Assembly: GCA_009761415.1 (NCBI GenBank)
Contig: QUOL01000002.1
Location: forward strand, 62,001 to 126,000
Direction of reading: 5' to 3'
Length of the DNA: 64,000 bases
Origin: Sarcomyxa edulis
Lineage: Eukaryota > Basidiomycota > Agaricomycetes > Agaricales > Mycenaceae
Shown here: piece by piece, positions 15,997-34,426 of the stretch
How positions within the stretch are numbered: the first letter of the stretch is position 1
How the letters are laid out: each line of letters opens with the position of its first letter
Notes under the pieces: generated by a model
Told to the model about the DNA's origin: nothing
Databases searched by the model: none
The model's input: only the letters and a program-made list of their open reading frames with translations
Made by a program: the position numbers and the translations under genes

Positions 15997-15998
15997 TC

Positions 15999-16260
15999 TT
16001 ATATGTACCATATCACTCTTCCCAGGGAATGTAGCACTCTTCCCAGGGAAGGCATCACTCTTCCCGGGGAAGGCATCACTCTACCCAGGGACAAACTATC
16101 TCTACCCGGGGACAGACTATCTCTACCCGGGGACAAACTATCTCTATCCAGTTATGATTTTGGTCCATTGGGAAGATATATGTTTTACCCGGGGAAGACA
16201 TATGTCTACCCGGGGAACATGTATATCTTCCCTGGGAAGATACACATCTTTCAGGGATGT
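15999..16260. repeat. Left subterminal array of CCCGGG-centred palindromes
   Basis: About ten spaced copies of short palindromes (CTTCCCAGGGAA, CTTCCCGGGGAA, CTACCCGGGGA, CTTCCCTGGGAAG) lie immediately inside the left TIR, at intervals of roughly 22-30 bp. Arrays of this kind near transposon ends are often transposase-binding or fold-back structures. Function here is inferred. Confidence 0.75.
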
Positions 16261-16439
16261 TCCCAACTCCTTCCACATACTACGTGGGCTTCCCTAATAT
16301 CATGTGGGACCTGACCATTAATTTAGGGAAGTCCCACAGAGTAGTAGAGAAATTGCCTCACTTGCTACAACATAATATCACTTATGCATCACTTTCTAAC
16401 AACTTGATATATTTGTTAGCCAAAACAATACTAACTAAC

Positions 16440-16560
16440 TATGTAGTCCATGGCAATCATGTGGGTTACACGGGTATGGGCCAATAGATAAATAAATACC
16501 AACTAAGGAGGTAGTCCATGGCAATCATGTGGGTAACACGGGTATAGGCCAATAAATATC
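16440..16560. repeat. Direct duplication of a ~50-bp subterminal unit
   Basis: The string GTAGTCCATGGCAATCATGT followed by ACACGGGTAT and GGCCAATA occurs twice. Three relatives in opposite orientation (GGC(C/T)TATACC ... ATTGCCATGGACTTG) lie inside the right end at about 32169-32325. The unit is thus a second inverted subterminal repeat of the element. Confidence 0.75.
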
Positions 16561-16600
16561 CACCAACCAACCAGTCGAGAACAATACAATTACATATACA

Positions 16601-19600
16601 TCAGAATTCCTCTTCGTCTTGCATCCTGTTACGTTTTCTTGGTGATCCTTCTCGGTTTGGTGTTCCTTTAATAGGTGACACATTTCTGCTGTGAATCGGA
16701 GTTTGAAACACCATAGAGGTACGTGGGATGTCAAGTCCTGTTGTAGTATACGCAGATTGCAATGCATCCGTAAATGTGAACTGTTCGATGGCTTCAATAA
16801 GTTCTTCTTCCATTTCATAATCTGCTTGTTCTTGTTCATCTTCCTCCTCCGAGTCGTCATTGTCATTCCCACTCCCAGCACCCAAACTCATCGCCTTATC
16901 AATCTCCTGTTGTGATGGACCCCATGAATCGGGCATGTCGTGAAAACACCCAACGGCTATCACTTTAGCCTTCCAGATTCCGCATAGCCTAGAAAGAGAT
17001 TGCGCCCTTAACTTGAGTTGATATTCAAGATGAACATCATTGCATTCATTCATGAGAATGGTGATGCATGCCCACTCCTCCATCATCCAGTCCTGCATGG
17101 AACATCTCTCCTTTGACAAGCGGATCTCCTCTTCCTCACAACGATCCAACTCCAAGAGACTTTTGATCGCTTGTCGAACATATTCATCGCCAAGCCACAA
17201 CGGAACAGCATTGGCATCGTCTGTAGCTTCATCTAACCCAATGTCTTGCCAGATATCATCATCAACATCCAAGTCAAAAAGCTTTTCTCGGTTGATCTGG
17301 GGGGGTATAATTGCGCCTCGTGGTGCTTGTTTTCCAGCTTTCAGAGTCGCCATTTCAGAACACAGTTTGTTGTACTTGGCAGCCAATTGAACAATGCCAG
17401 GCTCTTTTCTTTTGACCTGACTAGCCGTGTGACTGTGAAGCTTTTTTTCTGAACAGGATACAATCAAGACATGCACCACAGTCATTTGAGTCAATCAGAC
17501 TTACCATTGCTAGTCTTGCGGTATGCGCGTTCTAGACGGTCCAATTCAAACTTCCTCTGTCTGAGACGGTCACGAATGCGAGACTTTAATGCGCGTGCGT
17601 TCATGCGTAGCCTGAGGAACTGGTTTCCAACCAACGAAGCTAAACGTGCTTTGCCAGTAACCCCAAGTGCCGATCTCTTCCGTTTCAGAGTCTCAGCTAG
17701 ACTCTTGATTCTATCTTGAACCTCGTCCCGTTGACTGCTTGCCTCCACAGCATCCATATCATCCTCATACACACCAATAGCCAACATCTTTTCAATGTCC
17801 ACCAGTTCCTTCTTGTACGCTTTCTGACAATCTTCCAGTGTCATTATCTCTTCAATAATCTTGTCTGCCTTGTCTTTCGATTGACCTTGAGTTAAAGACG
17901 CATCAAGAAATCATGTCTATCATGAAAATACAAAATACTCACGTTGCAAAGGCTTGGTTTGTTCGATGACCTGTGCCTTCCATTCTGCCCTGATCAAAAG
18001 CTCCCAATCATCTCTGGAGACCCTCTCGTCTGTATTGGCGTTACAAAACTCTGTTTCTGCAGCCAACTTCCGCTTCTGACAAGACTCCCACTTCCGCTTC
18101 AGCCAATCACCAAGACTGTTCAGCGACTTGCCATCCAGATACCTGACTTGGGTATCGAGCACGTAGAGTCTGTGGTGATATCCAGAAACCCGTAAAGATG
18201 GGATAAGCAACTTCAGCGCGCTCCAAAACCTTTCACAACCTTCCCCATCTGACCATCCAAAGCCTTTGCACTTGCGTGGATGATAAATCAATTGGCAGGG
18301 CCACTGGTGCCCATACGCATGAAAGACGGATATCCCAAAAGTGATCCGACCCAAGTATTCATCCAGAAAACCCCACTTTGCGCAGCTCCTGTGTATCTGA
18401 CATCCGATGTCATAAAGCCAGCCCACAGTCATATCAGAAGGTATGTTCTCAAATAGCTTCTGAATCAAAGCCAAAGAATAATGCTGCTTCTCTCCCGCTG
18501 AAGTCATATTGGCCAACCACAAGACCCGGTCATGTCTGCAAAGCAAAGCCATGACACCTGTGTCCGCAAAAAATTGAGTGCTGGCCTTCTTCCTTCTTTC
18601 ATCAGCAGCTGTGAATGATTCGTTACATTCCTCCAGAACAGACGTTGGAACCTTCATGGAAGGTTCATAATCATCTTCCTTATCAGCATTGGCTTTACCA
18701 GCTTTCTTTTTCTGTGAAGGTCGGGAGGGCCTCTGCTCAGAAACCTTGGCTTCCATGGCCTTCACTTCTTCTTCCGTGAGAAAAACCGTGTTGGAATGGA
18801 AATATGGAGGGTCACGATAGCCGCCTTTGCTGGTTTTCCGTCTCAATTGGGTGAAACAAGCATCAGAGCTTACGATGACATCAGCGCTGGAAGCAAGTCA
18901 TTGAATGCGTAGACACTATGCGTGAAAATGACACTTACATTGCATTTGGATCATGCACCAAGTCACCACCAAAGCACAGTGGGCACCGCTGCCTCAAGTA
19001 CTCGGTTGGTCTTTTGAGATTGTCACGTGCGCTGGAAGAATTAGCTGCAAACAGTCTAAGTCAAGTTTCATGTAAAAAATGGTAAAGCTTACAAGACTCG
19101 TTCTCATCCTGCAAGTCTTCTTCTTGTTCCTCTTGTTCCTCTTTGTCCTCAATCAAAGTTGCTCGAACATGGTTGATCTTTTTATCCACCATTTTAACGG
19201 TTTCGTTTCCTAAGTAGGAATACCATAGCAAGGCATTGCCAAATCTCCTTCGAAGAGTATTCTGAATAATGACCTCAATCAAAACATGATATTTCATAAA
19301 CATGATCAAGGACTCACTCTAGCCTGTAGAGTATAATTACGGTCCGAGAGAAAGGTCTCCACCGCATCACTCCAAGCTGTAACATTGGGAGCAGTCCGAA
19401 CAAAGAGATGATTGACAAAATCAAGCATGTTGATGTCGACGGCAAGCGATGGCTCGAGTGGAGCACAAGGAAATAGGCCACGCGATAGAAGAAGCTGGGC
19501 GGGAGCACATGTACAGATGGTTAAAGTCTTTATTTCTGCATTTATGTCAGTCCTCAGACCAAAGACCAACCATTACTTTACTCACTGTCAAAATAAACAC

Positions 19601-20054
19601 AAGTCACTGAAATCTTCCTGCGTGTAGTGCCACATTGGCAGTAGAGAGCTTCGCACCGTTCCATGGAACGCAATGACTGCGACTCAGAAAGGACACGGAG
19701 GTAGGGAAGCAAAAGCTCTGGAATGACTTCGTTCTTCCATGTATTCCACTGTTTAAGTCTTTTTTTGCTCGCGGAACTTGTGTGTGGTTTAGGAGCAGCA
19801 GCATTGATTATCTCGGGCTCACCAGCCTCATCATCAAAGTCCAGTAAGTTCTCCGAGCTCCTGCTGGGACTTCGAGTGACGGGCTGGATAAACCGACCCT
19901 CTGGAGCATAAAGGTCCGTTCTGGGAAATATCGTTAAGCCTTGGATACGCTGCCGTCCATGTTCTAGAGCAGGAACCACAGCAAAGGGGTCTATTTTGTG
20001 AGGTGAAGTGGAGGTTGTGAAGCGTCGTCTCAGATTGGGAGTGCGGAAAGACAT
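16601..20054 (-). CDS. KDZ transposase with CxC cysteine cluster
   Basis: Seven exons (20054-19586, 19535-19318, 19273-19093, 19044-18939, 18886-17943, 17885-17505, 17448-16601) join in frame to 1049 codons including stop. The N-terminal part has the cysteine cluster typical of these transposases: CQCGTT, ICTCAPAQLLLSRGLFPCAP, later NTLRRRFGNA and RQRCPLCFGG. The catalytic region has VSSDACFTQLRRK, DTGVMALLCRHDRVLWLANM, GEKQHYSLALIQKLF, GWLYDIGCQIHRSCAKWGFL, VFHAYGHQWPCQLIYHPRK and GFGWSDGEGCERFWSALKLL, all close to the family pattern. A long coiled-coil-rich region and an acidic, then basic C-terminus follow. It should excise and integrate the surrounding 20.8-kb element. I see no frameshift or stop. 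The start is the methionine MSFRTPNLRRRF, as in relatives. Confidence 0.92.
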
Positions 20055-20239
20055 CTTATAGCACAGGAGTGGGGGAGAAAGAAAGGGGGGAAAGGAACCT
20101 GTTGTTGCCAGCACACCTTAGTATTTATTTCTTATCATGAGAAGTGCATGATCTTATTTTGAACTATCACCATGTGATGTCAATTCTATTATTACAAGGC
20201 ATGCTATTGACTGATAAGTCAACAGCACACCTAAGACAT

Positions 20240-20269
20240 ATTATTGTCAATCTGCGGATTGACAATAAT
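20240..20269. promoter_or_regulatory. 13-bp-arm palindrome upstream of the KDZ transposase
   Basis: ATTATTGTCAATC and GATTGACAATAAT are perfect inverted arms around the spacer TGCG. The site lies 186 bp upstream of the transposase start codon and 266 bp past the end of the first passenger gene. It could be an operator-like site or a structured DNA element. Function is inferred. Confidence 0.5.
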
Positions 20270-20534
20270 TCAAGTTGTCAATCCAAATTGACATTGATCA
20301 AGATATGTCGCCGATCTGTAGATCGACGACGAGACAATACTATCCGAAAAATACGTGCATGTGTAAAGAAGAAAAAAACGACGCCAGGCCTGACCCCCCG
20401 AAAGGACACTGCAAGATACTACTAGATATGTATGTACTTTAAGCATGCACAATATTCGTGTATGGAATTGTGCATGCTTAGTGACTACGGTTAGTATGTA
20501 CGTATACAAATGTCAGTTCGATCCAAATGTCCAG

Positions 20535-23511
20535 CTAAGTCGCGGGCGAGCAAGCCAAGTGAGACGGGATCTGGCGAGGGCAGACTGCAGCGCGACCAAA
20601 CGTGTTGTAGAAGATCTGGCAATATGTCTGTGCCAACATCTTTTCGACGTCGCTGATTTTCTTCGAACAGTTTGTCCTGGACATCTCCGCAAACGAAGGG
20701 AGACGGACCCCGTTGAAGAGACGGCGTGTACCATGCGACATGGGCCAGTCCGACATGACGAGTCGGAGACAATGGAGGAAGGGGGCCTTCTCAGCAAAGT
20801 GGACAGCAGCGAGTCCTCGGTTCCTATCTGGCATTTCTACCATGTACCCGGTATCTCCGAAAAAGACGTCTTGGATGGCTTCGTTGCGTGTCCCGGCGTT
20901 GTCTTCTACCCACAAATCCGGCCTAAGATGACGATCCAAAGCGAGCAGTTCGAATCGGAAGTTCAACTCGCACAACTCCCAAAGAATCTCGGACTCGATC
21001 TCGGGAGTCAGAGCCTCGTCCATGGCGGCCTCATCGTAGGTCTCAAAGACAGTGTCGTTCCAAGCAACTTGCGGGGGGACGGTGGTTTGCTGACCGAACA
21101 GGTCATGGACACGAGCGACGCGCGCGGCGTTGTGTGTCTTGCGGCGGGTGGTGGGGCGGGGAGGGGGAGGCGCAGCATCTTTGTCGCCAGACACGTTGGC
21201 TTCATCTGCTTCATCGGCATGGTCGGATTTGTCGACTTCTTCGTCGTCTGCTCCGTAGCCTTCGTCTGCTCCGTAGCCTTCGTCTGCTCCGTAGCGTTCG
21301 TCAGCTCCATCGCCTTCTTCATCTTCGTCAGGCAGCAGGCTAGAATCATCCCTGAGACGTCGCAAAACAGGAGCAACCGCTGATTGGGGTGCAAGATGCA
21401 AAAAGCGGCCTAAGAAAGCCCTCCAATCCTGGTTGCAGACTGCTCGAGGAACAAAGTTCACAGCCCACATCGAGAGTAAAACCGCGCTACGTGCTGCAAT
21501 CCAATTGATGAAGTAGCGAAGTCGATTTTTGGTCGAAATGAACAAACCGTGCTCGGGGAAGAGATATCCCGTTGTCGGCATCTGTTTGGTGGTCTCGACG
21601 CTTGGACGATTTGTCGTGTTCACCTTTGAGAGCCCCAAAGCCCAAGCAGGAATGGCAGGGGGCATCGTTTTTCCCACTATTTCCTGGAATTTGTTCCGAC
21701 CAGGATGTTCATGAGCCTTCCCCTTTCCTTTGTTTGTTTTCCTTTTCTTCTTTGGAGGCTTCGAAGGGGACTCCTCAATGGAATCGGCCGAAACGATATC
21801 GCGCGTGGGGGTAGACGTTGTGTCTCCAGATTGGGAGACGGCAACAGACTGGGATGTAGTTTTAGAGACGGTGGAGGAGGATCTGCCCGTGAAAGCCGAC
21901 GTTGTGCCTGGAGGAGGCTGAGACACTGTGAAGGACTTCGACGTTGATGTCGAGACGTTGGAGCTCGAGACCGTTGTCGATTTAGACGTTGACGACATAG
22001 ACATGGACTTGGAAATAGAGGTGCTCGACTTCGACGTTGACGTTGACGTTGACTTCGACGTTGACTTTGACATAGCTCGCGAAGGTGCTTGGCGGCGTGA
22101 GCCAGACTTAGAAGGACGAACATCTAAGTCATCTTCGTTGCCTGGATTGATGCTAGGCGCGTCAACATCCACGGCAGGATTCGATCCAGCCAGCCTCACA
22201 GGAGCACAAGTCGGGGGCTCAGCAGAGAATGTCAAAGGTTGAGGAGGTGCTACCAAGACAACCGCAACAAGTCAGTTTCACGTAGATAGCATTCAAATTG
22301 GCAATAAATACCTCGATTTGGCCTGGCTTCTCCGCTCCATAGTTCGTAGGTGAAGGAGTCCCAATGTAATGGGTCACCATCAAGCCGGGTTGGAGCTTCG
22401 CGAATACTCTGACCGACTGGGATCATCCGAGCGGGTGCAGGCTCGTCATCGCGCAGACTAAGGCCAGGATATTTTCGGCCGTTTCGGCGGATTGCTCGAC
22501 CAAGACTCTCTGTGGCATCACCAAAGTAGACAATGTCAAAGGGCGCTGATTTTCCAGCCTCATCGCGGAAGTGAACGCCCACGATGTCGACGGGAGCAAG
22601 CTCGTCAACGACTTTGTTGATGTTCATGCGGGGAGGTAACTCGTGCTTCCGGCGTGAGAGCCACACGGGAATGCGCATCTTCATCATGTTGGCGACAACA
22701 TACGGATCGCTCGTGATGCAACCCAACAAGTCGCGCTCAGCGGGTGGACAGTCCGTTTCGTCAAATTGGTCCTTCAACCTGGGGATATAGACCGTGTAAA
22801 ATCTAACGAAGGAGACGATATCTAGGTACAATCTTTGAAACTCTGCAATCTGCAGAACGAGCTCGGCGGGAGTCATCGGGGCGTACATCAGTTGTGTCCA
22901 GAGAAAACGAATGGCGTTGTGCGGATGGTAGAGGTAGCTGATATTTGGGTTTTGGTGACAATGCCACTCATCAAACTTCTTACAAGCCTCCTCGTACAAA
23001 GGCTTTAGCTGCTCTAGCCTCGATTTTCTCAGAACACCAATGGTCATGCGAAATGCATTGTTGAGATCGAGATGAAGATCATCAACGGTAGGAGTCCAGT
23101 AAGCCATAAAGAGGGGATTTTGAGGATCCTTCGTGGGGTAAGGGAGAACGCATGTATGTTGGTACGTTCTGGTCCACCATTGTGGCCACCGGGAGAACTC
23201 GTACTGCGCGAAACGGCCGTCCGCTCGAGCCTGCAGAATTGCAGGACCGTAAAAAACACGGGGAACTGTCTCGGCATTGGGTGACGTGATGATATGCCAT
23301 TCGCGAACGATTGAGTCTGGTAGTACAGGGTCTGAGAGCCAAGGACTGATAGCGAGAACTTTTGCGTCTAATGCATTATAATGACCTGAATCCAGATAAT
23401 TCTATGTTACCGTCGTCTGTGGGACAAAGGCGGGACTTACGTTTCTCATCTGGCCGATGAAAACGAGGGAACGTGGGCCGCTGAGGGTTGTACCAATTCT
23501 GAGATGCCATC
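20535..23511 (-). CDS. KDZ passenger protein 1 (unknown function)
   Basis: Exons 23511-23442, 23385-22312 and 22249-20535 join in frame to 953 codons. The protein starts MASQNWYNPQRPTFP. An aromatic-rich globular domain covers about residues 25-380 (ISPWLSDP, SRWPQWWTRTY, MAYWTPTVDDLHLDLNN). A long Ser/Thr/Lys-rich stretch near 430-520 (SKSTSKSTSTSTSK) precedes a basic patch KPPKKKRKTNKGKGK that could be a nuclear signal. Further on are a second globular part with RNRLRYFINWIAARSA, a degenerate acidic repeat GADE(R/G)YGADEGYGAD, and a C-terminal region with LWELCELNFRFELLALDRHL. I recognise this layout from anonymous basidiomycete proteins found near transposons but know no function. It is transcribed away from passenger 2 across a shared control region. 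Its leader holds three hairpin-bearing introns. The last exon could hide another small intron. Confidence 0.7.
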
Positions 23512-23606
23512 GTACGCAAAAAGAGGGAGGAGTTGGAAAAAATGCAGCAAGACTGAGAAGAATCAGGAGCGAGATTGAAAGCGACACCACAATCGAGATT
23601 AAAGAA

Positions 23607-23820
23607 CTACATTATAATGTATGTCAGAATGAGGGAGAACAAATTGAAGAGATGAGCTGGTGACCCAACCCCGGAACAGACAAAGGAGTCAATGTTTCAG
23701 GGACCACGACGGACAGTAGAGTCAACGTCGTGGTAAGCCAGGAGGTGGACAGAAGAGTCAACTCCTCCTGGCTTGGACAGACCAGAGGAATATGGGAGAC
23801 AATCGAAAAAAACGACTTAC
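23607..23820 (-). repeat. Hairpin-triplet intron M1
   Basis: On the minus strand this opens GTAAGTCG, has branch site CTGAC and ends ATAATGTAG, in the leader of passenger 1. The downstream exon contains the start codon at 23511. Hairpins on the plus strand are 23669-23702 (stem CCCCGGAACA/TGTTTCAGGG), 23704-23733 (CCACGAC/GTCGTGG) and 23738-23771 (CCAGGAGG/CCTCCTGG). Confidence 0.8.
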
Positions 23821-23898
23821 GGGTAAAGTCCAAAAGTAATAAGATTGAGCGGAGTGGAGAGCGACAGCAACAGCAACAGCAAGATCGATAGCGACAGA

Positions 23899-24125
23899 CT
23901 GTGATATAGCTCATGTCAGTATGTTTCAAACCAAGGTAATCTGAACTGAAGCAATATTGTGGCGATCCAACCCCAAGACAGACAAAAGAGTCAATGTTTT
24001 GGGGACCACGATGGACAGCAGAGTCAACATCGTGGTAAGCCAGGAGGTGGACAGAAGAGTCAACTCCTCCTGGCTTGGAAAGACCAGAGGAATATGGGAG
24101 ACAAATGGGAAAAAACCCGACTTAC
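23899..24125 (-). repeat. Hairpin-triplet intron M2
   Basis: On the minus strand this opens GTAAGTCGG, has branch site CTGAC and ends ATCACAG. Hairpins are 23971-24004 (CCCCAAGACA/TGTTTTGGGG), 24006-24035 (CCACGAT/ATCGTGG) and 24040-24073 (CCAGGAGG/CCTCCTGG). Stem 2 differs from M1 at a paired position and keeps pairing. Confidence 0.8.
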
Positions 24126-24189
24126 AGGTGAGATCCAAAAGCAACCAGACCAACCAAAACCGAAAGCGAGGTTGAAAGCGACAGCAAGA

Positions 24190-24434
24190 CTGCACAAGAA
24201 TTTTCGTCAGTATATGGTAGACCAAATGAAAACGGATTATAGAAGACAAGCTGGTGATCCAATCCCGAGACAGACGAAGGAGTCAATGTCTCGGGAACCA
24301 CAATGGACAGTAGAGTCAACAATGTGGCAAGCCAGGAGATGGACAGAAGAGTCAACTTCTCCCGGCTTTGGATAGGCCAGCGATCCAGGGAAGGAGGGAA
24401 GGCAAAAAGAAAAAAAAGAGAATCGAAAACATAC
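24190..24434 (-). repeat. Hairpin-triplet intron M3
   Basis: On the minus strand this opens GTATGTTTTC, has branch site CTGAC and ends TTGTGCAG. Hairpins are 24263-24296 (TCCCGAGACA/TGTCTCGGGA), about 24298-24327 (CCACA/TGTGG, shortened) and about 24332-24366 (CCAGGAGA/TCTCCCGG, one mismatch). Confidence 0.75.
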
Positions 24435-24873
24435 CTTTTTACAATGTCAGAATAATAGGAAGACCAGTGAAACCCAATGTGGTGAATAACACGATGTAGA
24501 GAGTGACGGCAAAAACGAGGATAAGGAGGATGGCGAGAGGGATGAAGAGAAGGGAGGTGAAGAGGGTCAGAGAATCAATGGTGGAGGTGATGGTGGTGGT
24601 GAAGACGTGAGAGGGACTTCGCAACGAACACGAGAGTTTTGAAGCGGAGTTGAAACTGAGTTGAAATTTGATGGCACATGACTAGTCGCGTCCTGCCAAT
24701 TTGGCGTCAAGTCTCGCGTCCTCAACGACACCATCAAGTCAATCACAGGTATGTTCTCTTCATGGAAGTTAACAATTACACCAATCATTTTTTCTAGATT
24801 TTCACTTGGTCTCAAATGTCCCACCAGCTATCGGCCAGGACAGGTCAAGACTTTTGGCCCAATTAGGCAGGCT

Positions 24874-24893
24874 TTCGAAGTTTGAACTTCGAA
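24874..24893. promoter_or_regulatory. Palindrome in the divergent control region
   Basis: TTCGAAGTT and AACTTCGAA are perfect inverted arms around the two bases TG. The site lies between the leftward (M) and rightward (P) hairpin-intron series, where a bidirectional promoter would be expected. Function is inferred. Confidence 0.4.
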
Positions 24894-25022
24894 CCGCCGT
24901 AACGCCACCTCATCTTTTTCTCTCATCGCCATCACCTACTGTCATCGTCGTCGTCCTCATTTCTCTCATCGTCGTCGTCGTCGCCGTTCTCAAGTCGATA
25001 GGTATTTATGTTGGAAGTGCAG

Positions 25023-25254
25023 GTAAGCCAATTCCATCTTGTTTTATCTCGCCTTCTCCCATCTCTCCTGGTCTGTCCTGTTGAGGGAGAGTTGACTCTA
25101 CTGTCCACTCCCTCGACTGCTACGATGTTGACTCTACTGTCCATCGTAGCCCCCAAGACATTGACTCCGTTGTCTGTCTTGGGGTTGGATCACCAAGTTA
25201 CTCCTTTTCGAATCTTTTGTATACGGACATCTGACATTCATCTTGATAATCTAG
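25023..25254 (+). repeat. Hairpin-triplet intron P1
   Basis: Donor GTAAGCC, branch site CTGAC, acceptor GATAATCTAG. Hairpins are 25083-25114 (GAGGGAG/CTCCCTC), 25120-25149 (CTACGAT/ATCGTAG) and 25151-25184 (CCCCAAGACA/TGTCTTGGGG), followed by the conserved TTGGATCACC. Confidence 0.82.
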
Positions 25255-25341
25255 ATTCTCCGTCCCTCAGTCTGTTGTGTTCTTGCTCCCTCGTCGTCGT
25301 CGCCGTTCTCAAGTCGATAGGTATTTATGTTGGAAGTGCAG

Positions 25342-25573
25342 GTAAGCCAATTCCATCTTGTTTTATCTCGCCTTCTCCCATCTCTCCTGGTCTGTCCTGT
25401 TGAGGGAGAGTTGACTCTACTGTCCACTCCCTCGACTGCTACGATGTTGACTCTACTGTCCATCGTAGCCCCCAAGACATTGACTCCGTTGTCTGTCTTG
25501 GGGTTGGATCACCAAGTTACTCCTTTTCGAATCTTTTGTATACTGACATCTGACATTCATCTTGATAATCTAG
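25342..25573 (+). repeat. Hairpin-triplet intron P2
   Basis: Tandem copy of P1, offset by 319 bp. Hairpins lie at 25402-25433, 25439-25468 and 25470-25503. Confidence 0.82.
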
Positions 25574-25794
25574 ATTCTCCGTCTCTCAGTCTGTTGTGTT
25601 CTCGCTCGCTCTCATCCCGATCATCGTTTCATTGTCGTTTTCCGTCAGATCTTTCAATCTCCATGCGGACTCAGTTTCATTTGTACGTGCAAATACTGGT
25701 CAGATCTATTGATACTAAAATCTCCTCGGGCACATTAGGACTAGCAATGTCACTTGTTTTTTTGCTTTGTTCTCAACCGAGATCCTGATCCATG

Positions 25795-26028
25795 GTAAGT
25801 CGTTGTTAGCTTGCTCTGGGTCTTTGCGTTCTTCATTACTGTTCTTCCTACTTCATCCATACAAGGAGGCGTTGACTCTGCTTTCCACCTCCTTGTCTAC
25901 CACGATGTTGACTTGTCTGTCCGTCGTGGTACACACAAGACATTTGTCTGTTTTGGGTTTGCATCACCGGCTCTCTTACGCTCCATCCTGCTTTCCCTCG
26001 ACTGCTGCTAACTCAGTGTACCCCACAG
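25795..26028 (+). repeat. Hairpin-triplet intron P3
   Basis: Donor GTAAGTCG, branch site CTAAC, acceptor TACCCCACAG. Hairpins are 25862-25895 (CAAGGAGG/CCTCCTTG), 25900-25929 (CCACGA/TCGTGG) and a shortened third near 25934-25957 with a deletion in its loop. Confidence 0.75.
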
Positions 26029-26909
26029 ATTCTGGTGCTCGTTCTTGCTCCAACGTTCTCACTAGTTTGCCTGGCTACAATCAATTGCAATATCGTTCAG
26101 AGTATGTATAGTTTCCTACATTCGCTTTCCAGTCTAACTCTACACATTTTCAGCTCTCTCAAGAGTACGATCACGGTCGCGTAGTATTTGCAGACAGACT
26201 ACTCTTCTACATCCCCATGGTATCTTTCTTGCTCCATCCACTCGATCATCTCATGCTTGGATATCAATGCATCCTCCAGTGCTGTGATTTCTAGATAGTC
26301 ACCTTCCTATGTTTTTGATCTTTCGGCAATCTTGATCTCTAGGCTTTCTACGCACAGCCTTGTTCCCTGTTGTGGAGTTTGACGTCCAGACTCCACGAGC
26401 CTGAATACTTCTCGCCAGGTCCAAATCTTGCAGCTCATATCAAGCTATTACTTGGTTCAAACAGGCAGAATATTGCAGCAACATGTGCATGTATATCACG
26501 ATTCACATCGTTGTCACTCGACCAGTTTCACTCCTATATACAAGTATGAATTAGAGCTTTGTTATTGCTCCCTACACATTAACTAGTATGTAATTTATTT
26601 CATGCCACTGTTTTGTGCTTACATTTTGCCCTTCATATTTTATCAGGACATCCTATCGCGAAAAGACGCGTCAGTGCACAAGAACGCGTCTTGCTTGACG
26701 TGATCAACCAAACACGTGAGCCACCAAACACGTGACTAAACAAACAAACTGCTTGCCGCTCTTTTTTTCTTTTCTTCCCTCACATTCGTCCCCCTTCGCA
26801 TTCTCAGTACCCCTGCTCTCTCTCTCTCTCCCACTCTTCCGTTCTCCCGTTCTCCCGTTCTCCAATTTTACAATTTCTTCTCTCTCTTGATAGCGTCCAA
26901 GATCAACAG

Positions 26910-27151
26910 GTAATATTTCTTTTTCGTTTTTTTCTCATCACCTTACCCCCCCCTCCCCTCACCTTCCCTGGTCTATCCAATTGAGGGAGAGTTGACTCTT
27001 CTGTCCACTCCCTCAACCCACGACGTTGACTCTGCTGTCCGTCGTGGCTCCTAGGCATTGACTCCATTGTCTGTCCTGGGGGTTGGATAACCAACTTCGG
27101 AGTGCTTCGACTATTCTCTAATGTTCACCGTGCTGACGTGTATCATTTCAG
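26910..27151 (+). repeat. Hairpin-triplet intron P4
   Basis: Donor GTAATAT, branch site CTGAC, acceptor TATCATTTCAG. Hairpins are 26983-27014 (GAGGGAG/CTCCCTC), 27018-27047 (CCACGAC/GTCGTGG) and an imperfect third at about 27049-27082. Confidence 0.78.
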
Positions 27152-27181
27152 TGTCCCACACAAGTTGAACTTTCACTCTCA

Positions 27182-27296
27182 CTTCCCCGCTCTCCCTTCC
27201 CCGCTCTCGCATCCCCGCTCTCGCATCCCCGCTCTCGCATCCCCGCTCTCGCATCCCCGCTCTCGCTTTCCCGCTCTCGCTCGCGCTCGCGCTCAT
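27182..27296 (+). repeat. 14-bp minisatellite in a leader exon
   Basis: About eight head-to-tail copies of a 14-bp unit close to CATCCCCGCTCTCG lie between introns P4 and P5, so within a leader exon of passenger 2. Open frames on either strand here are repeat artefacts. Confidence 0.85.
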
Positions 27297-27310
27297 CAAC
27301 GTATCGCACG

Positions 27311-27532
27311 GTAAGCTGATTTTCTTGTTTTTGTAGTAGTATACGCTCTCTCTGGCATATCCAAGTGAGGAAGAGTTGACTCCTTCGTCCACTTCCTCGC
27401 TGACCACGATGTTGACTCTGCTGTCCATCGTGGTCCCCGATACATTGACTCCTTCGTCTGTTTCGGGGTTGGATCACCACCTATTCCTCATTCTGTCGTG
27501 TCTGAATTTTCTGACGGTTCGTTCTCACGCAG
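27311..27532 (+). repeat. Hairpin-triplet intron P5
   Basis: Donor GTAAGCTG, branch site CTGAC, acceptor TTCTCACGCAG, 16 bases before the start codon of passenger 2. Hairpins are 27367-27398 (GAGGAAG/CTTCCTC), 27404-27433 (CCACGAT/ATCGTGG) and 27435-27468 (CCCCGATACA/TGTTTCGGGG), then TTGGATCACC. Confidence 0.82.
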
Positions 27533-27547
27533 TGCTCGATTTTGTCT

Positions 27548-30500
27548 ATGGCCCCTCCAACTCAAAGTCGTGTAACGCGTTCCGCGACGCGTCTTGTGCA
27601 AGACGCTCCGCAATCGCAGCCTTCTGCGGAAAACCAGGTAAGCAATATTGTATATGCAGCACCCGCCTTCTTATTAACGATGTTCTTGCGAAGGGGAATC
27701 GAGGAAAGCGGGCGGCTAAAGGGAAGAAGAAATCACAGCCTACCCACGAAGCGCTGCCATCGTCTTCGGACCACGAGCCTGCTTCGTCAGACGACGAACC
27801 CGGCTCCTCAGGCCATGAATCTATGCCAACTGAGCCTGAAAGGAAGACCAAACGGAAGGTTGGACGTCCGCCTCCTGGGACTGTAAGTATTATTATTATC
27901 ATCATTATTATTGAGTTGGTAGTTACAATAATTCGTAGAAACGAACGGCTGCTATGAAAGGAAAACAAAAGGCCCCTGTGACAGCTGCACCCAGTCCTGC
28001 AGTTCCAAGTAATTCCAGCATTTCGACGGCGTCAACGATGTCATCCGCCTCAACCGCTGGAAAAACCAAAAAGCAAGACGTTGGCACAAGTGCAAGGTCC
28101 ACGGTGCCCTCAAAGTAAGCTTTTTTTCGTTCCTGCACTGAATTCTAGTACTTGACTAACTACGTATTGTATAGATCATTCTATGTCGAGGTACCGTCGC
28201 TCTCGGAGTCGATCTCTGGACGGCAATCCCTCGAGAGTCGAGCGACAGGCCGAAAGGATCCTGCTGGTCAAGGGTAAGTCGTTGACACCTATCTGTCCTA
28301 TTCATCTTACTTACGATTGAGTAGGGTATTTCCGGGGCCAGCTTCCACTCTCGTCCCAGGCATCAAGGACCGTCTGCCGTTGGACGGTTCTGCATCGGGC
28401 TCCAGTCTTACGGTCCGGTACTTCTCTCGGGCGGCGGCTATGGTTGCACAAGCAAGAGCCTCACGGGACATTGACGATACCGACCAGGAAGCGACCCCTC
28501 GTCCCACTGCTTCTTATCAGCAGAAGGGTCATGTTGAGGATCTGGGCCCCGCTTACTCCGCCTCACTCGCGCGATTTGTACCGTCGCCTCCACCACCATC
28601 GCAACCGCGAACTCAGTCGCGTGTCCCACCTGCAACACCATCGGCTTCACAAAGAAGACCCCCCCCTGCAACACCATCGGCTTCACAACAAAGACCTCCC
28701 CCTGCAACACCCTCAACATCGCAGAGGAGACCTCCACCTGAGACGCCATCAGCATCGCAGAAGGGACCTTCTGCAGCAACTCCATTAGGTTCGCAAGTTG
28801 CGGCCACTCCTCCATCGCGAACGCCAACCCAGTCAAACCCGCCTCCCACACCATCTGTCTCCCGTGTCCGCAAGACACGGGGGATTGATCGGTCTGCGTC
28901 TATCGCAACCCACGTCTCGCCCCACCCGCCTGTCGATCCTAAGTTGTACAAGGTCGCATTTCCACCCTCGGCCGCCCTGCAGCCTTATAGGCGGCCGAAA
29001 GGAAATTTCGCTTATAATTATGCCTTCTATCATGCCAGGCTCAGAAAAACACAATACGTCCAATACCTCGGAGAAGCGCCTTTCCTGGGCGCTCCCAAGG
29101 ATGTCGAAGAGGCGAACCGACTTCGCAAGACCAAGATCCAGGTGTACGCAACGGAGGAATTCGATCCCCTCCCTGCAGGCTGGATTGCTCCTTCCAACAG
29201 CCTTATGGATCCTGACCAGCTCGCGGATGGATACGATCGATGGCTTGAGAAGAGGCAGCCTACTGTTCAGCAGCGAGACGCCGGCGCTGGTCCCTGGTTT
29301 GCAGTCCTGAAGGCTCCACCAGAGACGCACGAGCCCACTCCCAGTCCACCCGAGACGCGCGAGTCAAGTCCCAGTCCGCGCGAACGTCCTAGCTCGCCAT
29401 TCGAAGTCATTGGTCAGAATCCTGACAATGACTTGCTCATGGAAATCAACAGCGACTATGTTTGTGACCCGGAAACGGGTGACGTTGTCGATGTTTCTGA
29501 GTTAAAGGGGAATGAAGAAGAGGATGGAGAAGATGATGAGGCTCCGATTGTGGAGTCTTCGCCCTCTGGCAGTGACTGGAGCCAAGATCGTCAGGAGCAG
29601 GAAGTGAAGTTGAATTTCCGGCGTAAATTAGGGTACGAAGAGCCAGGTACTGAGGAGGAAGATGAGGCGGAAGACTTGGAACTTGCGGAGGATGTTGTGC
29701 AGAGTCCGGAGCGAGTGGATCGTAAAGGCAAAGGGAAAGCAAAAGAAGTATATGTAGATGAGTCTGAGGATGGTTCTGACTCTGACACTGAGGAAACCAC
29801 CACCGCTGATCAGGGGGAGTTCAAGAAAGGTCCTTTCTCCAAGAAGGAACTTGCGCAAATTGATGCACTTGGCTCTCAAGTTGACGAACTCATCACCAAC
29901 CTTGCGACAACTCTCCGAAGGTCCCCGGAACAAGTCAAGAAGTACGCCGGTCTCAAAATCACTCCCTCACGTGCTGGAAACTTGTGGAATTTGTATGAGC
30001 GTTTCTTTGCTCTGGATCATCCACCGCCGGCGGACAAGAACAACAGTGAGTCTCTTGAATATACACCTTGGTGATGTAAATGCTGATCGAGTCTTGCCAG
30101 TTGTTGCTCTCCGACAGTGGAATCAGGCTGCTTCTGCAGCTTACACCAAATATATGCAGGGCATCAGTCTCAAGGACAAAGTAGCACGGGATGCCAAACG
30201 CCAGGAACTTATGATGGACCTGGAGCTTGCAGAGATCATGATGACTCCACCATCCACTGCTAAGACTGTGAACACCTGTGTTCGCCAGTTGACAAGTCTC
30301 GTAAGCTATTCTTGCTTTCTAATTGCTCATTCTGCCTTTTTGCTGATATCTACATGATTATAGGCTAAATCCTACAGTCGGAAGTATGGTGTTGAGATGT
30401 GGGGAGGTGTTGTCTCCAGGGGTGCTGACCCTGAGGCTGACCTTGCTAGCGCTATGTTCTCGGGCTCTCCAGAAGCGAAAGATATACTGGAGAAGAACAA

Positions 30501-32048
30501 AGTTCCAATCCGTAACCTGCTGACCCTCTTTGCAGCTGGAATCCGGTTAGTACTGAAACTTTCTTTTTTTCGGACACTGCTGATATTTGTCTTGAATGCA
30601 GAGTTCAGGCTGCCAACAATTCGGGGGAAATGATATTGCCACTTATGGCAGACCCCAAGAAAAAGCCCAAACGTGATGAGGTTCGAAGACAGGTGTCTTC
30701 GAGACTTCGTGAACAACTCAGTAAGTCAACAATCAAATGAGTCTTTGAGCTATTCTTCTTACCAGCGTTTTAGCTCTTTGGGTCCCTAGCAAAGGAAAAT
30801 GCCAACCTTCCATGTTCCTTAGAGATGCCACCACCCATCATGTCAGGGCCATGAATTGGCCCAATGACGTTCAACCCATCGGACCTGGATTTGCCGTCCA
30901 TAAGTTGACGGTCATTGAGTTAGGCTTCTTGGCTGCTGCTTTGACTGGACAGGCTGGAGATCCTGCTCAGCTCAGGTTCGAAAAGTGGTCCGAAGGTTTG
31001 TTTGTTGTGTTTCCACTGTTATTTTACTTATCTGATCAAGTTCTTCACCACAGAGGAATGTCAAATGCCCCAGGATTCTCCATCTTATCCCAAGATTCCT
31101 TTGGTAATCTCACGAAAGGGACCTGTTCTCCTTCGAGTTTCGGACTATCTGAAGTCATCGAAGGATAAGGTCGTTGAAGAACCAGGGACTTCGGATGATG
31201 AAGAGGTTCCCCCAGCTCCCTATAACCCTTCGAAGTCCGCTCCGGAAAAATCTGTGGCATCGACTTCCGGTCCTGCTCCCCAACAGCCTTCCCGCCCTGC
31301 CGCTCGCCAACCTCCAACCAGAACTCTGCCTCCTGGGGTTGCTTCTTCCTCTCGCCCCACCCCTGTCTCTCGTAAGCGCTCTGTTTCCCAACAAAGGGCT
31401 GCTTCAGACTCTTTTCCGTTGATGGAGTCCCGTTTGAGGGCGGAGCAGAGGTTGGTGCCAGTGGATGAAGATTACAGTGAAGACCACCTGGAGCAGCATC
31501 CCTCCAAGCGATCAAGGATGCAGGAATCACAACACCATCCCTACCTTCCTTCTCAGATGCCTGGTCGTTCCCCCGATGACCATTTCATCTCTCAGCATTC
31601 CTCTCGTGTTCCCAGCCATCCTCCGGAGTCTTATGAAGTCCAATATCACTCCTCTCGCATGTCCAGTCACCCTCCAGAGCCTCAGCAAGGTTATCGCCAG
31701 CCACCTCGCAATGCTGACTACGGTTACGATGAGCGTTACATGAGGCAAGGGGAGTTTGACATGGATCATCAGGGATATCGTGGTTATGATTATCGACGGC
31801 GCTCACCAGGTCCACAGGAGCAGAGACGCTATTACGACGGAGGATATTCAGAGTCTCGGTATCCTAGTTATCCTCCCCATTCTTCCTGGCACCCTGACCA
31901 TCACGGCTGGCAGCCAAGTGACCAGGCCTATCGTGGGTCTCTTCCTCCACCTCAGAGGAACTCGGGACTTCCTCCCCCCAACGATTTAGACAGAGAAACG
32001 TATGATGGTCCTTCAAGGCTTCGGAATGCGTATCGGGATCAGTATTGA
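27548..32048 (+). CDS. KDZ passenger protein 2, AT-hook-like and proline-rich (unknown function)
   Basis: Ten exons (27548-27637, 27694-27882, 27939-28114, 28175-28273, 28325-30045, 30101-30300, 30364-30545, 30602-30720, 30774-30995, 31054-32048) join to 1331 codons with no internal stop. Near residues 83-92 is KRKVGRPPPG, an AT-hook-like motif, in a basic and acidic low-complexity N-terminus. A tandem Pro/Ser repeat (ATPSASQ(R/Q)RPPP) spans about residues 285-345. A globular stretch with tyrosine-rich FAYNYAFYHARLRKTQYVQYL follows, then acidic tracts, then a helical domain in exons 6-9 (MWGGVVSRGADPEADLA, FAVHKLTVIELGFLAAALTGQ). The C-terminus is rich in Pro, His, Tyr and Arg. Probably nuclear and nucleic-acid associated; function unknown. 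It diverges from passenger 1 and has hairpin introns in its leader. Confidence 0.75.
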
Positions 32049-32159
32049 GTTGTTTATTGGTTTCTATTGGTTTATACATGATTTTCTCTAATTTGACTGT
32101 TTTATATTAGTTTCTGCCTTATTCCTACTATAGCTATGTGGCTTTCCATAATTTCTCCC

Positions 32160-32330
32160 TCAGACTATCATTTTTGGCCTATACCACCTATTGCCATGGA
32201 CTTGCATATTTTTTACGTTTACCTCCAAAGTTTGGCTTATACCCTCCATTGCCATGGACTTGCATATGCCGTTACTTTTACTTTTGGCTTATACCTGCAT
32301 ACCTGCTATTGCCATGGACTTGTGCATGAT
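32160..32330 (-). repeat. Three copies of the right subterminal unit
   Basis: TTGGCCTATACC or TTGGCTTATACC, a short spacer and ATTGCCATGGACTTG recur three times at about 50-85-bp spacing. They are inverted relative to the pair at 16440-16560. Confidence 0.7.
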
Positions 32331-32469
32331 TTCGACATTAGAATATTCTTCGTATATCACAATTAATCAATGTGGACTTGGATAGTTCATGTTCTTCCCA
32401 GTGCCTTGGAATTGATGCAGCTTGAGACATTTCAAAACTTGGAACTTTAACACTTGTCTCAAACAGATG

Positions 32470-32840
32470 GGCTTATCCCACTGGCATTGTGGGACATCCC
32501 CAGAGGTCGGGGAGTTCCCAGACTCCTTGTGGGATTCCCATCCCGATACTGGGATGTCCCAAATAACTTGGGCTATTGCCAAGGTATGTGGGGACTTCCC
32601 AGTTTCACTGATGGGATGTTCCCATCACCTATGGGACATCCCCATCATCAGATGGAACAACCCATATCAGATGCGGGAATGTCCCAGGGAAGCATGTCAC
32701 TTCCCGGGCACAGAGACATGTTCCCATTTCACAGGTTCAACATCCCCACATCAAACTGGGACGTCCCACATCAAACTGGGACGTCCCAACTCAAACTGGG
32801 AAGTCCCAACTCAAACTGCGAGGTCTCAACTCAAACTATT
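32470..32840. repeat. Right subterminal palindrome array A (GGGA..TCCC)
   Basis: More than a dozen short quasi-palindromes of the type TGGGACATCCCA, GGGAGTTCCCA and GGGACGTCCCA occur at roughly 15-30-bp intervals. The central two bases vary while the GGGA/TCCC arms stay. Confidence 0.8.
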
Positions 32841-33052
32841 TGGGTATCATATATTTGTCAGAATAGTTAGCAATACATTGTGTGATCAGATGACACTATG
32901 TAATGACCGTCTGGAATATAATGAAACTTTGCGTTTGAGACATGTCTCTTGTCCACCAATACATGACCATTCCACAAGACTAGGCGTCTAAGGCACACCT
33001 ATTGTCAACGGATTCTAAATTATTCAACAAGAGTTTGCTTTTGATGTACATC

Positions 33053-33600
33053 TCTTGTTAACCAGTTCTGGTAGATCAATTTTGTTCTGGGATTCTTGTA
33101 CGTTTCTTGTCAACCAGTTCTGTGAGATCAATTTTGTTCTGGGATTCTTGTACGTCTCTTGTCAACCAGTTCTGGGAGATCGATTTTGTTGTGGGATTCT
33201 TGTACGTCTCTTGTCAACCAGTTCTGGGAGATCGATTTTGTTCTGGGATTCTTGTACGTCTCTTGTCAACCAGTTCTGGGAGATCGATTTTGTTCTGGGA
33301 TTCTTGTACGTCTCTTGTCAACCAGTTCTGGGAGATCGATTTTGTTCTGGGATTCTTGTACGTCTCTTGTCAACCAGTTCTGGGAGATCGATTTTGTTCT
33401 GGGATTCTTGTACGTTTCTTGTCAACCAGTTCTGTGAGATCAATTTTGTTCTGGGATTCTTGTATGTTTCTTGTCAACCAGTTCTGTGAGATCAATTTTG
33501 TTCTGGGATTCTTGTATGTTTCTTGTCAACCAGTTTTGTGAGATCAATTTTGTTCTGGGATTCTTGTACGTCTCTTGTTAACCAGTTCTGGGCGATCAGA
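33053..33600 (+). repeat. 52-bp satellite, about 10.5 copies
   Basis: A 52-bp unit beginning TCTTGTCAACCAGTTCTGGG recurs with exact period from 33053 to the partial copy at 33573. Two variant classes alternate in blocks: GGGAGATCGAT in the central copies and TGTGAGATCAAT in the flanking ones. It shows no spacer diversity and is not a CRISPR array. Because 52 is not a multiple of three, the same peptide appears in all frames. Confidence 0.95.
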
Positions 33601-34059
33601 TGTTGCCATTGAAATGAGTCACATCGGCCTTTTAAAATGCCACGTGATGTGTCCATGCATGACATGGTCATGCCACACGTCACATGTGCATCATATGTAT
33701 ACTTGATCATTGTTTTGGTGTTCCAAAAGGTCCAAAACCAAATGCAGTAAGTGAGGCTCAAACACTTGAAGTTTTCGGACACTTTTACCACTGCACCAGA
33801 AAGGAATATAATACTAGAACCTTTTAGCAAAACTGTACTGCGTTCAAACTAATTCTACCACCCCATACACCAAGCATTTCAAACCAGATCTCTTTGTCTA
33901 CCGATCCTGAAAAACTTATCTTATTCTGGCATTACCTCAAAAAGACTCTGCCTTCAAGGCACATCTCTTGTTCTCTGGTTCTAAGGCATTGGTCTTGTTT
34001 TACAAGCCTAGACTGCACAAAACTTTCAAGAATTCCACAAAACTGACACAAGACATGGA

Positions 34060-34415
34060 TGGGTACTCCCATCAAGTGTAGGGAACATCCATATTACTGT
34101 GGGAGCTCCCATCAATTAATATTGGGCATTGGTAGGATGTTCCCCAATTCCCTGATTGAATACTACTTATATCATGGGAGCATCCATGGTATATGTGGGA
34201 TATCCCCATCTGACATGGGAAGGTCCCACACTAGCATCATGTCCCATTTGCTTGTCTGGGACCTCCCAAAGATGATCTGGGAGTTCCCATCTCTACAGCC
34301 AGGACGTCCCATGGAGTGCTGGGAACATCCCGTAAATCCTTGGGAAGTCCCATCGTTGGCTGGGACATCCCATTGATCATTGGGAATGTCCCAATCATTG
34401 GCTGGGAGGTCCCAA
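34060..34415. repeat. Right subterminal palindrome array B (TGGGA..TCCCA)
   Basis: A second array of TGGGANNTCCCA palindromes abuts the inner edge of the right TIR, about fourteen sites. It is related to the array at 32470-32840 and distinct from the CCCGGG-type array beside the left TIR. Confidence 0.8.
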
Positions 34416-34426
34416 ACAATACACAC

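What the first reader, a model, noticed from the sequence alone, without database searches (positions are those of the whole stretch)
23607..27532. Eight long introns that each carry a conserved three-hairpin unit with varying but mostly paired stems
Seen: eight units of about 100 bp occur in two series, three on the minus strand (M1-M3) and five on the plus strand (P1-P5). Every unit lies inside a GT-AG interval of 214-245 nt with a CTGAC or CTAAC branch site just before the acceptor, while most other introns in this window are about 45-90 nt. Each unit has three hairpins in fixed order, ending in TTGGATCACC or a close variant. Loops keep a TTGACTC...TGTC core. Stems differ between copies but usually stay paired: GAGGGAG/CTCCCTC versus GAGGAAG/CTTCCTC; CTACGAT/ATCGTAG versus CCACGAT/ATCGTGG versus CCACGAC/GTCGTGG; CCCCAAGACA/TGTCTTGGGG versus TCCCGAGACA/TGTCTCGGGA. 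Such double changes argue for selection on structure. Both series point with the gene they precede. Inference: an introner-like family or a structured RNA module controlling splicing, export or dosage of KDZ passenger genes, possibly a recognition tag of the element.
Basis: partly seen in the sequence, partly recalled or inferred. Interest (0 to 1): 0.92.

Follow-up and report, generated by a model that had tools for sequence, protein, structure and literature searches.

The report
Triple-hairpin RNA tags in transposon introns
A large mushroom transposon carries, in unusually long introns at the start of both its genes, repeated modules of three small hairpins that show nearly the same loop, and evolution has kept the hairpins while changing their letters, so they are probably docking sites through which the element controls its own genes.

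Summary
All eight units sit in GT-AG intervals of 214-245 nt and fold as a four-way junction: three hairpins plus a closing stem. Each hairpin is a stem, a UU bulge, GAC/GUC and a UCUNNU-type hexaloop. The host is a complete 20.8-kb KDZ transposon (14857-35675; about 1.2-kb TIRs, 8-bp TSD). M1-M3 precede the transposase gene itself, P1-P5 a second gene without Pfam match. The genome holds at least 57 units, seen only in copies or fragments of this KDZ clade. In a divergent subfamily (proteins 36-52% identical) several units have unrelated stems but the same loops and pairing. Covariation exceeds a tree-aware null in all three hairpins (7 of 46 pairs; the top 8 of 9,591 column pairs are structural). 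Splice signals, ATG-poor leader exons and one 231-nt unit-bearing coding intron indicate real introns. No Rfam, introner or MITE family fits. Most likely: an RNA-protein recognition array controlling leader-intron splicing of both genes. The binder is unknown. Strand tests did not exclude a DNA-level role; other fungi and RNA-seq could not be examined.

The parts
14857..35675 (.). Complete KDZ transposon (C12 copy), termini CACTTCAG..CTGAAGTG, flanked by 8-bp TSD CAATTCGA
   Evidence: Inverted repeats 14857-16031 / 34396-35675; TSD read
14857..16031 (+). Left TIR, about 1.2 kb
   Evidence: 86-100% complementary over its long blocks, 75% at the inner end
34396..35675 (-). Right TIR
16601..23510 (-). 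KDZ transposase gene (draft model, 1,990 aa, MASQNWYNPQRP...); KDZ domain within ORF 17923-18897
   Evidence: Pfam PF18758 E 2.3e-64; draft exons
27548..32048 (+). Second (accessory) gene, draft 1,325 aa, MAPPTQSRVTRS..., no Pfam match
   Evidence: homologues at 11 places in the genome, all read as parts of unit-bearing elements
23607..23820 (-). M1 leader intron (214 nt), unit 23651-23789
23899..24125 (-). M2 leader intron (227 nt), unit 23953-24091
24190..24434 (-). M3 leader intron (245 nt, GTATGT donor), unit 24245-24384
25023..25254 (+). P1 leader intron (232 nt), unit 25064-25202
25342..25573 (+). P2 leader intron (232 nt), tandem copy of P1, unit 25383-25521
25795..26028 (+). P3 leader interval (234 nt) with a degraded unit 25844-25976
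26910..27151 (+). P4 leader intron (242 nt, GTAATA donor), unit 26964-27100
27311..27532 (+). P5 leader intron (222 nt), unit 27348-27486
25064..25202 (+). Reference unit: closing stem plus three hairpins, each with TTGACTC...TGTC (UU bulge, GAC/GUC, hexaloop)

Best explanation
Each unit is a structured RNA module in a spliceosomal intron. It presents three copies of one bulged hairpin: paired stem, UU bulge, GAC/GUC, hexaloop UCUNNU or close to it. SHOWN here: the hairpins are kept by compensatory change; loops are nearly invariant while stems turn over; most units lie between splice signals, mainly in the 5' leaders of both genes of one KDZ transposon clade, and none was seen elsewhere in the genome. 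INFERRED: a sequence- and shape-specific trans-acting factor, most likely a protein, binds the three loops and sets how efficiently the leader introns are spliced or retained. That would tune transposase and accessory protein together, as copy-number or tissue control. The best candidates for the factor are an element-encoded protein (the accessory protein or the transposase N-terminal region, both seen only with units) or a host splicing factor. A retained leader intron would add structure and upstream ATGs; the unit-bearing coding intron of the C16 copy, if retained, would give a stop codon in the head of the first hairpin.
For: Covariation: 95.4% of cells paired against 89.0% shuffled; 23 pairs with double changes against 11.7; slid partners 35-47% paired. 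Tree-aware null: 7 of 46 pairs significant, spread over H1-H3; 2 of 9,591 in all-pairs mode, both structural. Divergent C16/C4 set: 21 distinct hairpins pair at 6.29 of 7 positions, permuted mean 3.32, maximum 4.62 in 5,000. Loop specificity: TTGACTCTYATGTC occurs 30 times genome-wide, all in 10 triplets. Introns: donor and branch+acceptor on 33 of 52 triplet units against 5 of 52 antisense and 0.67 shuffled; branch+acceptor alone 45 against 5 antisense; few ATGs in 14 leader exon segments (6 seen, 14.1 expected, 6 of 500 shuffles as low) but no lack in intron flanks (33 against 30.2). C16 draft gene model: the only long intron (231 nt, eight others 54-80) holds a unit inside coding sequence, and its retention reads a stop at the first loop. 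Clade restriction: 9 of 9 N-terminal transposase exons lie within about 0.3 kb of a unit. Units are more conserved than their surroundings in the one element pair compared.
Against: No binder was identified: the accessory protein has no Pfam match and no convincing PDB match (best E 0.2). Strand tests are inconclusive: G-U against A-C changes 39 to 26 (p 0.14); sense fold lower in only 21 of 44 units. The closing stem shows no significant covariation. Donor motifs alone discriminate poorly (37 of 52 sense, 25 of 52 antisense). Two C16 units (P1, P2) have no recognisable splice sites and no closing stem. The draft transposase model also has three introns over 100 nt (109-256) without units, which may be artefacts. 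One element copy (C27) keeps units although the accessory gene was not found beside them. No expression data.
Confidence: 0.5

Rival explanations
1. The excised intron, not the pre-mRNA, is functional: the stable triple-hairpin RNA accumulates and acts in trans, for example as a decoy that titrates a host silencing, export or splicing factor. Many copies per element would then raise the dose.
For: Copy number varies from 2 to 8 units per element copy and is raised by tandem duplication; very stable folds (mean z -7.0); nearly identical loops three times per unit.
Against: The restriction to the element's own two genes and the narrow size of the unit introns (214-245 nt) are explained at least as well by action in cis. 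No RNA data.
Confidence: 0.17
2. The units act as DNA. Either TGACTC/TTGAC is bound in duplex by a regulator (a bZIP/Gcn4-type factor, a W-box-type factor or the transposase; names and motifs recalled), or the inverted repeats extrude as cruciforms recognised as DNA hairpins, regulating the divergent promoters.
For: The loop contains TGACTC. Folding strength does not favour the sense strand (21 of 44) and the G-U excess is not significant. Units flank a divergent promoter region. The C12 TIR also holds several TTGAC motifs near its end.
Against: A duplex site does not need covarying arms or a paired GTC. Units seen beside a gene start point towards that gene, and most lie between splice signals. 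TTGACTC is absent from the C12 TIRs, and the TTGAC motifs are missing from the first 80 bases of the C40a terminus and of the presumed C16 terminus. A unit sits in a coding intron in C16.
Confidence: 0.15
3. Passive structure: the cloverleaf folds away about 110 nt so that an over-long fungal intron behaves like a short one. No specific factor is involved.
For: The eight other introns of the C16 accessory draft are 54-80 nt and the nine of the window's accessory draft 51-71 nt, while unit introns are 214-245 nt; the unit is central in the intron.
Against: It does not explain why the loop UUGACUC..UGUC is kept in triplicate in units whose stems share nothing, nor why C16 P1 and P2 keep loops without a closing stem.
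Confidence: 0.1
4. The units are an introner or MITE family that spreads as introns.
For: Similar intron-borne units in many places with secondary structure.
Against: Units were seen only in copies or fragments of one KDZ clade (complete; two searches listed in part; one search scored 40 of 48 candidates). Copies arise by tandem duplication of exon plus intron and with the whole element. Several C16 units share only loops, not a transposable sequence.
Confidence: 0.03

Closest known systems
KDZ (Kyakuja-Dileera-Zisupton) DNA transposons of fungi
   Same: KDZ transposase domain, TIRs and 8-bp TSD as stated for Zisupton (PMC12730594: abstract, passages and one section read).
   Different: In that text 'hairpin', 'untranslated' and 'subterminal' occur 0 times, and the passages shown with 'intron' concern gene prediction. 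The second gene here has no Pfam match.
P element third intron (IVS3) splicing control, Drosophila
   Same: A DNA transposon controls transposase output through retention of one of its introns, set by RNA-binding proteins (PMC7776569, passages read).
   Different: There the site is a short exonic silencer with pseudo-5' splice sites, not an array of covarying triple hairpins in several leader introns of two genes.
Intron- or UTR-borne structured regulatory RNAs of fungi (RPS13 and lysyl-tRNA synthetase introns; fungal TPP riboswitch in a 5'-UTR intron)
   Same: Conserved structures in fungal introns or leaders, proposed to autoregulate or, for TPP, said to regulate splicing (PMC8216456, passages read).
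   Different: As presented there those are host-gene structures, and that screen covered Ascomycota. Here a transposon-borne module carries three nearly identical loops and is repeated up to eight times per element.
Introner-like elements and repeated stwintrons in fungi
   Same: Sequence-similar introns with secondary structure (PMC8469720 and PMC9024468, search listings and abstract starts only).
   Different: Introners spread to new positions in many host genes (recalled); these stay in one transposon's own genes.
IRE or MS2-type bulged protein-binding hairpins (recalled)
   Same: Stem, bulge, short upper helix and small loop with an invariant recognition sequence.
   Different: Rfam finds nothing at gathering threshold and one hit far below its cut-off, at E 0.1.

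Membership tests
KDZ transposon, Zisupton type | KDZ transposase domain | tested here: met
   PF18758 E 2.3e-64, ORF 17923-18897
KDZ transposon, Zisupton type | 8-bp target site duplication | tested here: met
   CAATTCGA on both sides of 14857-35675; one copy examined
KDZ transposon, Zisupton type | Terminal inverted repeats | tested here: met
   About 1.2-kb TIRs
KDZ transposon, Zisupton type | Transposase groups with Zisupton, not Kyakuja or Dileera, on a tree | not tested
   No tree of transposases was built
Structured (selected) nucleic-acid element | Covariation beyond phylogeny | tested here: met
   7 of 46 pairs in structure mode, 2 of 9,591 in all-pairs mode, own R-scape-like null
Structured (selected) nucleic-acid element | Acts as sense-strand RNA | tested here: inconclusive
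   G-U against A-C 39:26, p 0.14; MFE sense lower in 21 of 44
Spliceosomal intron | Donor, branch site and acceptor on the same strand as the unit | tested here: met
   33 of 52 with strict motifs; 5 of 52 antisense; 0.67 shuffled
Spliceosomal intron | Reading frame kept open by removal | tested here: met
   C16 accessory gene intron 68346-68576, draft model; retention reads stops
Spliceosomal intron | Spliced reads | not testable with these tools
   No RNA-seq available
Introner | Similar introns in many unrelated host genes | tested here: not met
   Whole-genome patterns: KDZ-clade loci plus chance-level strays (complete; 19, 55 listed in part)
MITE | Dispersed copies outside a parent element | tested here: not met
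   No dispersed copies seen (40 of 48 candidates scored); one lone hairpin at C39:534206
microRNA-like or hairpin-siRNA precursor | Long stem with conserved arm sequence | tested here: not met
   Stems mostly up to about 11 bp; arms vary and loops are conserved
Known Rfam family | Match at gathering score | tested here: not met
   0 of 4,227 families in the window; HOTAIR_3 at E 0.1, 21.9 of 80 bits
Intron-borne splicing regulator (P element or TPP-riboswitch type) | Splicing changes when the element is bound or mutated | not testable with these tools
   Needs a reporter assay

The most novel reading that the evidence does not exclude
A DNA transposon marks its own pre-mRNAs with a repeated RNA code (three nearly identical bulged hairpins per leader intron, several introns per gene, on both divergent genes), and an element-encoded protein reads it. 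The result is a self-contained RNA-level feedback circuit that couples transposase and accessory protein output, and gains or loses sensitivity by adding or deleting units through unit-to-unit recombination.
Probability: 0.3. Interest if true: 0.92.

Novelty: new variant of a known kind. Interest (0 to 1): 0.82.

Why it matters
To my knowledge cis-regulatory RNA structures in eukaryotic DNA transposons are barely known; the P element's third intron is the case I recall. Here a clear structured family, with covariation inside one genome and a very specific loop, is tied to one transposon clade and its two genes. The loop gives a short, synthesizable bait, so the binder and any effect on splicing are directly testable. 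If an element protein reads it, this would be an RNA-level self-control circuit in a fungal transposon. If a host protein does, it would show how mushrooms recognise or tolerate these elements.

Tried and rejected
Rejected: (1) Introner and MITE, because copies were seen only inside the KDZ clade. (2) miRNA or siRNA precursor: stems mostly up to about 11 bp, loops rather than arms conserved. (3) Known RNA family: Rfam none at gathering score. (4) A shared transposase DNA site TTGAC in TIR and unit: suggestive in the C12 TIR, but absent from the first 80 bases of the C40a terminus and the presumed C16 terminus. (5) Strand test by G-U against A-C: 34 to 14 in distinct hairpins but 39 to 26 by tree events, p 0.14, and no MFE difference: inconclusive. 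(6) Viral contigs: 26 contigs with one match each, never two, taken as chance. (7) Homologues of the accessory protein in the large protein set: 6,633 candidates, none at E <= 0.001. (8) PDB by sequence: 14 matches, all von Willebrand factor, best E 0.2. (9) Literature: in the parts listed, seven answered searches showed no paper on such units. No structure prediction was run.

Rows dropped and limits: of 167 loop matches in fetched loci, four with hexaloop TCGCGC and no stem (in what I read as accessory coding sequence) and the lone C39 match were left out, leaving 162 in 52 triplets and 3 doublets. Those 162 were collected by their loop, so its constancy among them is partly by construction; the model-found alignment A3 shows altered loops only in the two degraded units C12P3 and C27M1. 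One search aligned 37 of the 47 strong main-family units: seven identical or nearly identical rows and three partial units were not given. One search tested the 52 triplet units, not the 3 doublets and 2 degraded units. One search used 14 distinct exon segments (those between tandem main-family units with both splice sites found).
Full report
WHAT IS THERE. The window is G000:C12:62001-126000 of a 35.6-Mb genome in 40 contigs. The eight units lie in the middle of a complete KDZ transposon at 14857-35675: TIRs of about 1.2 kb, termini CACTTCAG..CTGAAGTG and an 8-bp duplication CAATTCGA on both sides. It holds two divergent genes (draft models). The minus-strand gene starts at 23510 and encodes the KDZ transposase (PF18758, E 2.3e-64). 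The plus-strand gene starts at 27548 and encodes a protein of about 1,325 aa without a Pfam match. M1-M3 precede the first, P1-P5 the second.

ANATOMY OF A UNIT. The eight-row alignment folds as a four-way junction: a closing stem and three hairpins, with 14 of 46 predicted pairs changed on both sides in some sequence. Each hairpin has the same head: a paired stem, a two-base UU bulge on the 5' side, GAC/GUC, and a hexaloop, most often UCUNCU (94 of 162), UCUYAU in the C16/C4 set (30 of 162), and mostly UCCNNY or the like in the rest. H1 in the main family usually carries an A-A mismatch just below the head (read).

HOW MANY AND WHERE. A covariance model of the eight finds 47 full-length units of at least 63 bits in the window plus ten loci fetched around the pattern matches, and five weak matches. 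Ten more units with the loop TTGACTCTYATGTC lie on C16 and C4: that motif occurs 30 times in the genome, all in ten triplets, 0 in the reversed control. The total is at least 57 units. GTTGACTCTNCTGTCC occurs 76 times, 75 in units and one alone on C39. RTTGACTCNNNTGTCY occurs 150 times (reversed control 2); of the 100 places listed, five lie outside units, close to my estimate of about four by chance. All 9 N-terminal transposase exons found in the genome lie within about 0.3 kb of a unit (unit places). The accessory domain is found at 11 places, all of which I read as parts of unit-bearing elements, two of them split by insertions (C40b; and C21b). The C4 copies and C28:47-48k carry units with the accessory gene, but no N-terminal transposase exon was found there. 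Of ten KDZ domains matched in one stretch (2-217 of the profile, one with an internal TGA), eight lie in elements whose leader carries units. Two cannot be judged: C28:2955 runs into a contig end, and C21:9989 has no N-terminal exon of its own type beside it. About 38 further KDZ places, mostly with a split or partial domain, have no unit within about 7 kb by the complete lists; I did not read their leaders.

SELECTION ON STRUCTURE. On 37 distinct main-family units (A3), 95.4% of cells form standard pairs, against 89.0% (sd 0.3) after shuffling partners and 35-47% after sliding; 23 pairs carry double changes against 11.7. I wrote a tree-aware null in the manner of R-scape (substitutions of each column redistributed on a FastTree tree, G statistic with APC, 200 replicates). 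The eight highest of 9,591 column pairs are all structural; two pass E < 0.05 in all-pairs mode, and 7 of 46 in structure mode, in H1, H2 and H3. None lies in the closing stem, which therefore rests on folding alone. The C16/C4 set gives independent evidence. Its two transposase-side units (C16 M1, M2) still resemble the main family in some stems, but P1, P2 and P4 have unrelated stems, and M1, M2 and P3 fold with closing stems of different sequence. Together 21 distinct hairpins pair at 6.29 of 7 positions, against 3.32 (maximum 4.62) with permuted arms. The encoded proteins of C16 are only 52% (transposase N-terminal region) and 36% (accessory, part of the domain) identical to the window's. 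Between C12 and C40b the transposase-side units are 80-95% identical in 40-column windows while most of the leader around them is 30-70%.

ARE THEY INTRONS? Among 52 triplet units a strict donor and a branch-plus-acceptor are both found for 33, against 5 on the antisense strand and a mean of 0.67 (maximum 4) in shuffles. Branch plus acceptor alone gives 45 against 5 antisense; donors alone discriminate less (37 against 25). Of the 42 main-family triplets 41 have the branch and acceptor; intron lengths are 214-244 where both strict signals are found. Fourteen leader exon segments have few ATGs (6 against 14.1, 6 of 500 shuffles as low) and intron flanks do not lack them (33 against 30.2). Three of the six remaining ATGs are in near-identical 216-217-nt segments that seem to hold a further small intron (my reading). 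In the C16 copy one unit sits in a coding intron: the draft model needs a 231-nt intron at 68346-68576 while its eight other introns are 54-80 nt. Retaining it would put a stop in the head of the first hairpin. Against a simple rule that only unit introns are long, the draft transposase model of the window has introns of 109, 167 and 256 nt without units; these may be model errors. The C16 P1 and P2 units have no clear splice sites.

STRAND. Orientation, splice signals and scarce ATGs favour RNA. Two direct tests did not settle it: G-U against A-C changes 39 to 26 on the tree (p 0.14), and the sense fold is lower in 21 of 44 units.

MECHANISM. A loop kept in triplicate while stems turn over is what a bound hairpin would show, rather than a spacer or a small-RNA precursor. 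A plausible way for such a module to act inside an intron is by changing how that intron is spliced. The P element (PMC7776569, passages read) shows that transposons can govern transposase through intron retention, and fungal introns are known to hold structured regulators (PMC8216456, passages read). I therefore commit to a protein-bound splicing-control array with confidence 0.5. The binder and the direction of the effect are inference. The accessory protein is the leading element-encoded candidate only because it was found at no place that I read as unit-free.

EVOLUTION. Unit number differs between copies (minus plus plus side: 3+5 in C12, 4+3 in C40b, 3+3 in C34, 4+2 in C40a, 0+2 in C21c) through tandem duplication of exon plus intron with a period near 300 nt. 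At P5 the C12 and C40b elements change from 32-55% identity to 92-100% at the start of the unit, as if elements recombine at units. On the tree of 37 units, transposase-side and accessory-side units are clustered but not two clades (4 changes, shuffled mean 11.4).

NOVELTY. No Rfam family matches at its gathering score. Seven answered full-text searches showed no description of such units in the papers listed (several lists were cut, for example 12 of 714). That library lacks most subscription papers, and the main paper on fungal KDZ elements in it (PMC12730594) was read in abstract, passages and one section only. I file it as a new variant of a known kind: a new structured intronic RNA family that would work like a cis-regulatory protein-binding hairpin array. 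Not done: other fungal genomes, RNA-seq, any binding test.

Noticed in passing
G000:C39:534192-534207 (L038:4693-4708, minus): A single GTTGACTCTGCTGTCC hairpin with a 6-bp stem, the only one of 76 exact matches outside units; decayed relict or chance.
   Followed up: partly
L042:3269-3353 (C16:66769-66853, plus): ARAGORN calls a tRNA-Thr (TGT) between C16 units P2 and P3, inside the transposon's leader region.
   Followed up: no
L031:6688 (C21:6688): A KDZ element's left TIR begins directly at the end of a unit of another copy (..TTGGATC|CACTTCAG..): apparently a nested insertion into a unit.
   Followed up: partly
window:27201-27700 against L040:6951-7460: Identity between two elements jumps from about 32-55% to 92-100% at the start of unit P5, suggesting recombination between elements at units.
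   Followed up: partly
window:27176-27301: 14-nt tandem repeats (CTCTCGCATCCCCG) in the leader exon just before P5.
   Followed up: no
window:28590-28805: 36-nt tandem repeats in the accessory gene, coding for PPATPSASQ-like repeats.
   Followed up: no
window:14857-14966; L075:3322 downward: The TIR start holds a palindrome CCTCTTAGGTT..AACCTAAGAGG in both the C12 and C40a elements although the rest of the termini differs.
   Followed up: partly
L040:5564-5640, L037:5682-5758, L031:5206-5282, L039:5249-5322: Weak model matches (12.7-23.4 bits) between full units, possibly decayed units that lost hairpins.
   Followed up: partly
G000 (whole genome): About 38 further KDZ places, mostly with a split or partial domain, have no unit within about 7 kb, so the genome seems to hold several KDZ lineages.
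   Followed up: no
window:6159-7997 and 37351-39285: A NACHT/NPHP3-type NTPase ORF and an F-box-like ORF flank the transposon outside its TIRs.
   Followed up: no
G000:C4:187130-187947 and 197287-198104: Two inverted copies about 10 kb apart of the C16-type accessory gene with its two units; no transposase N-terminal exon was found there.
   Followed up: partly
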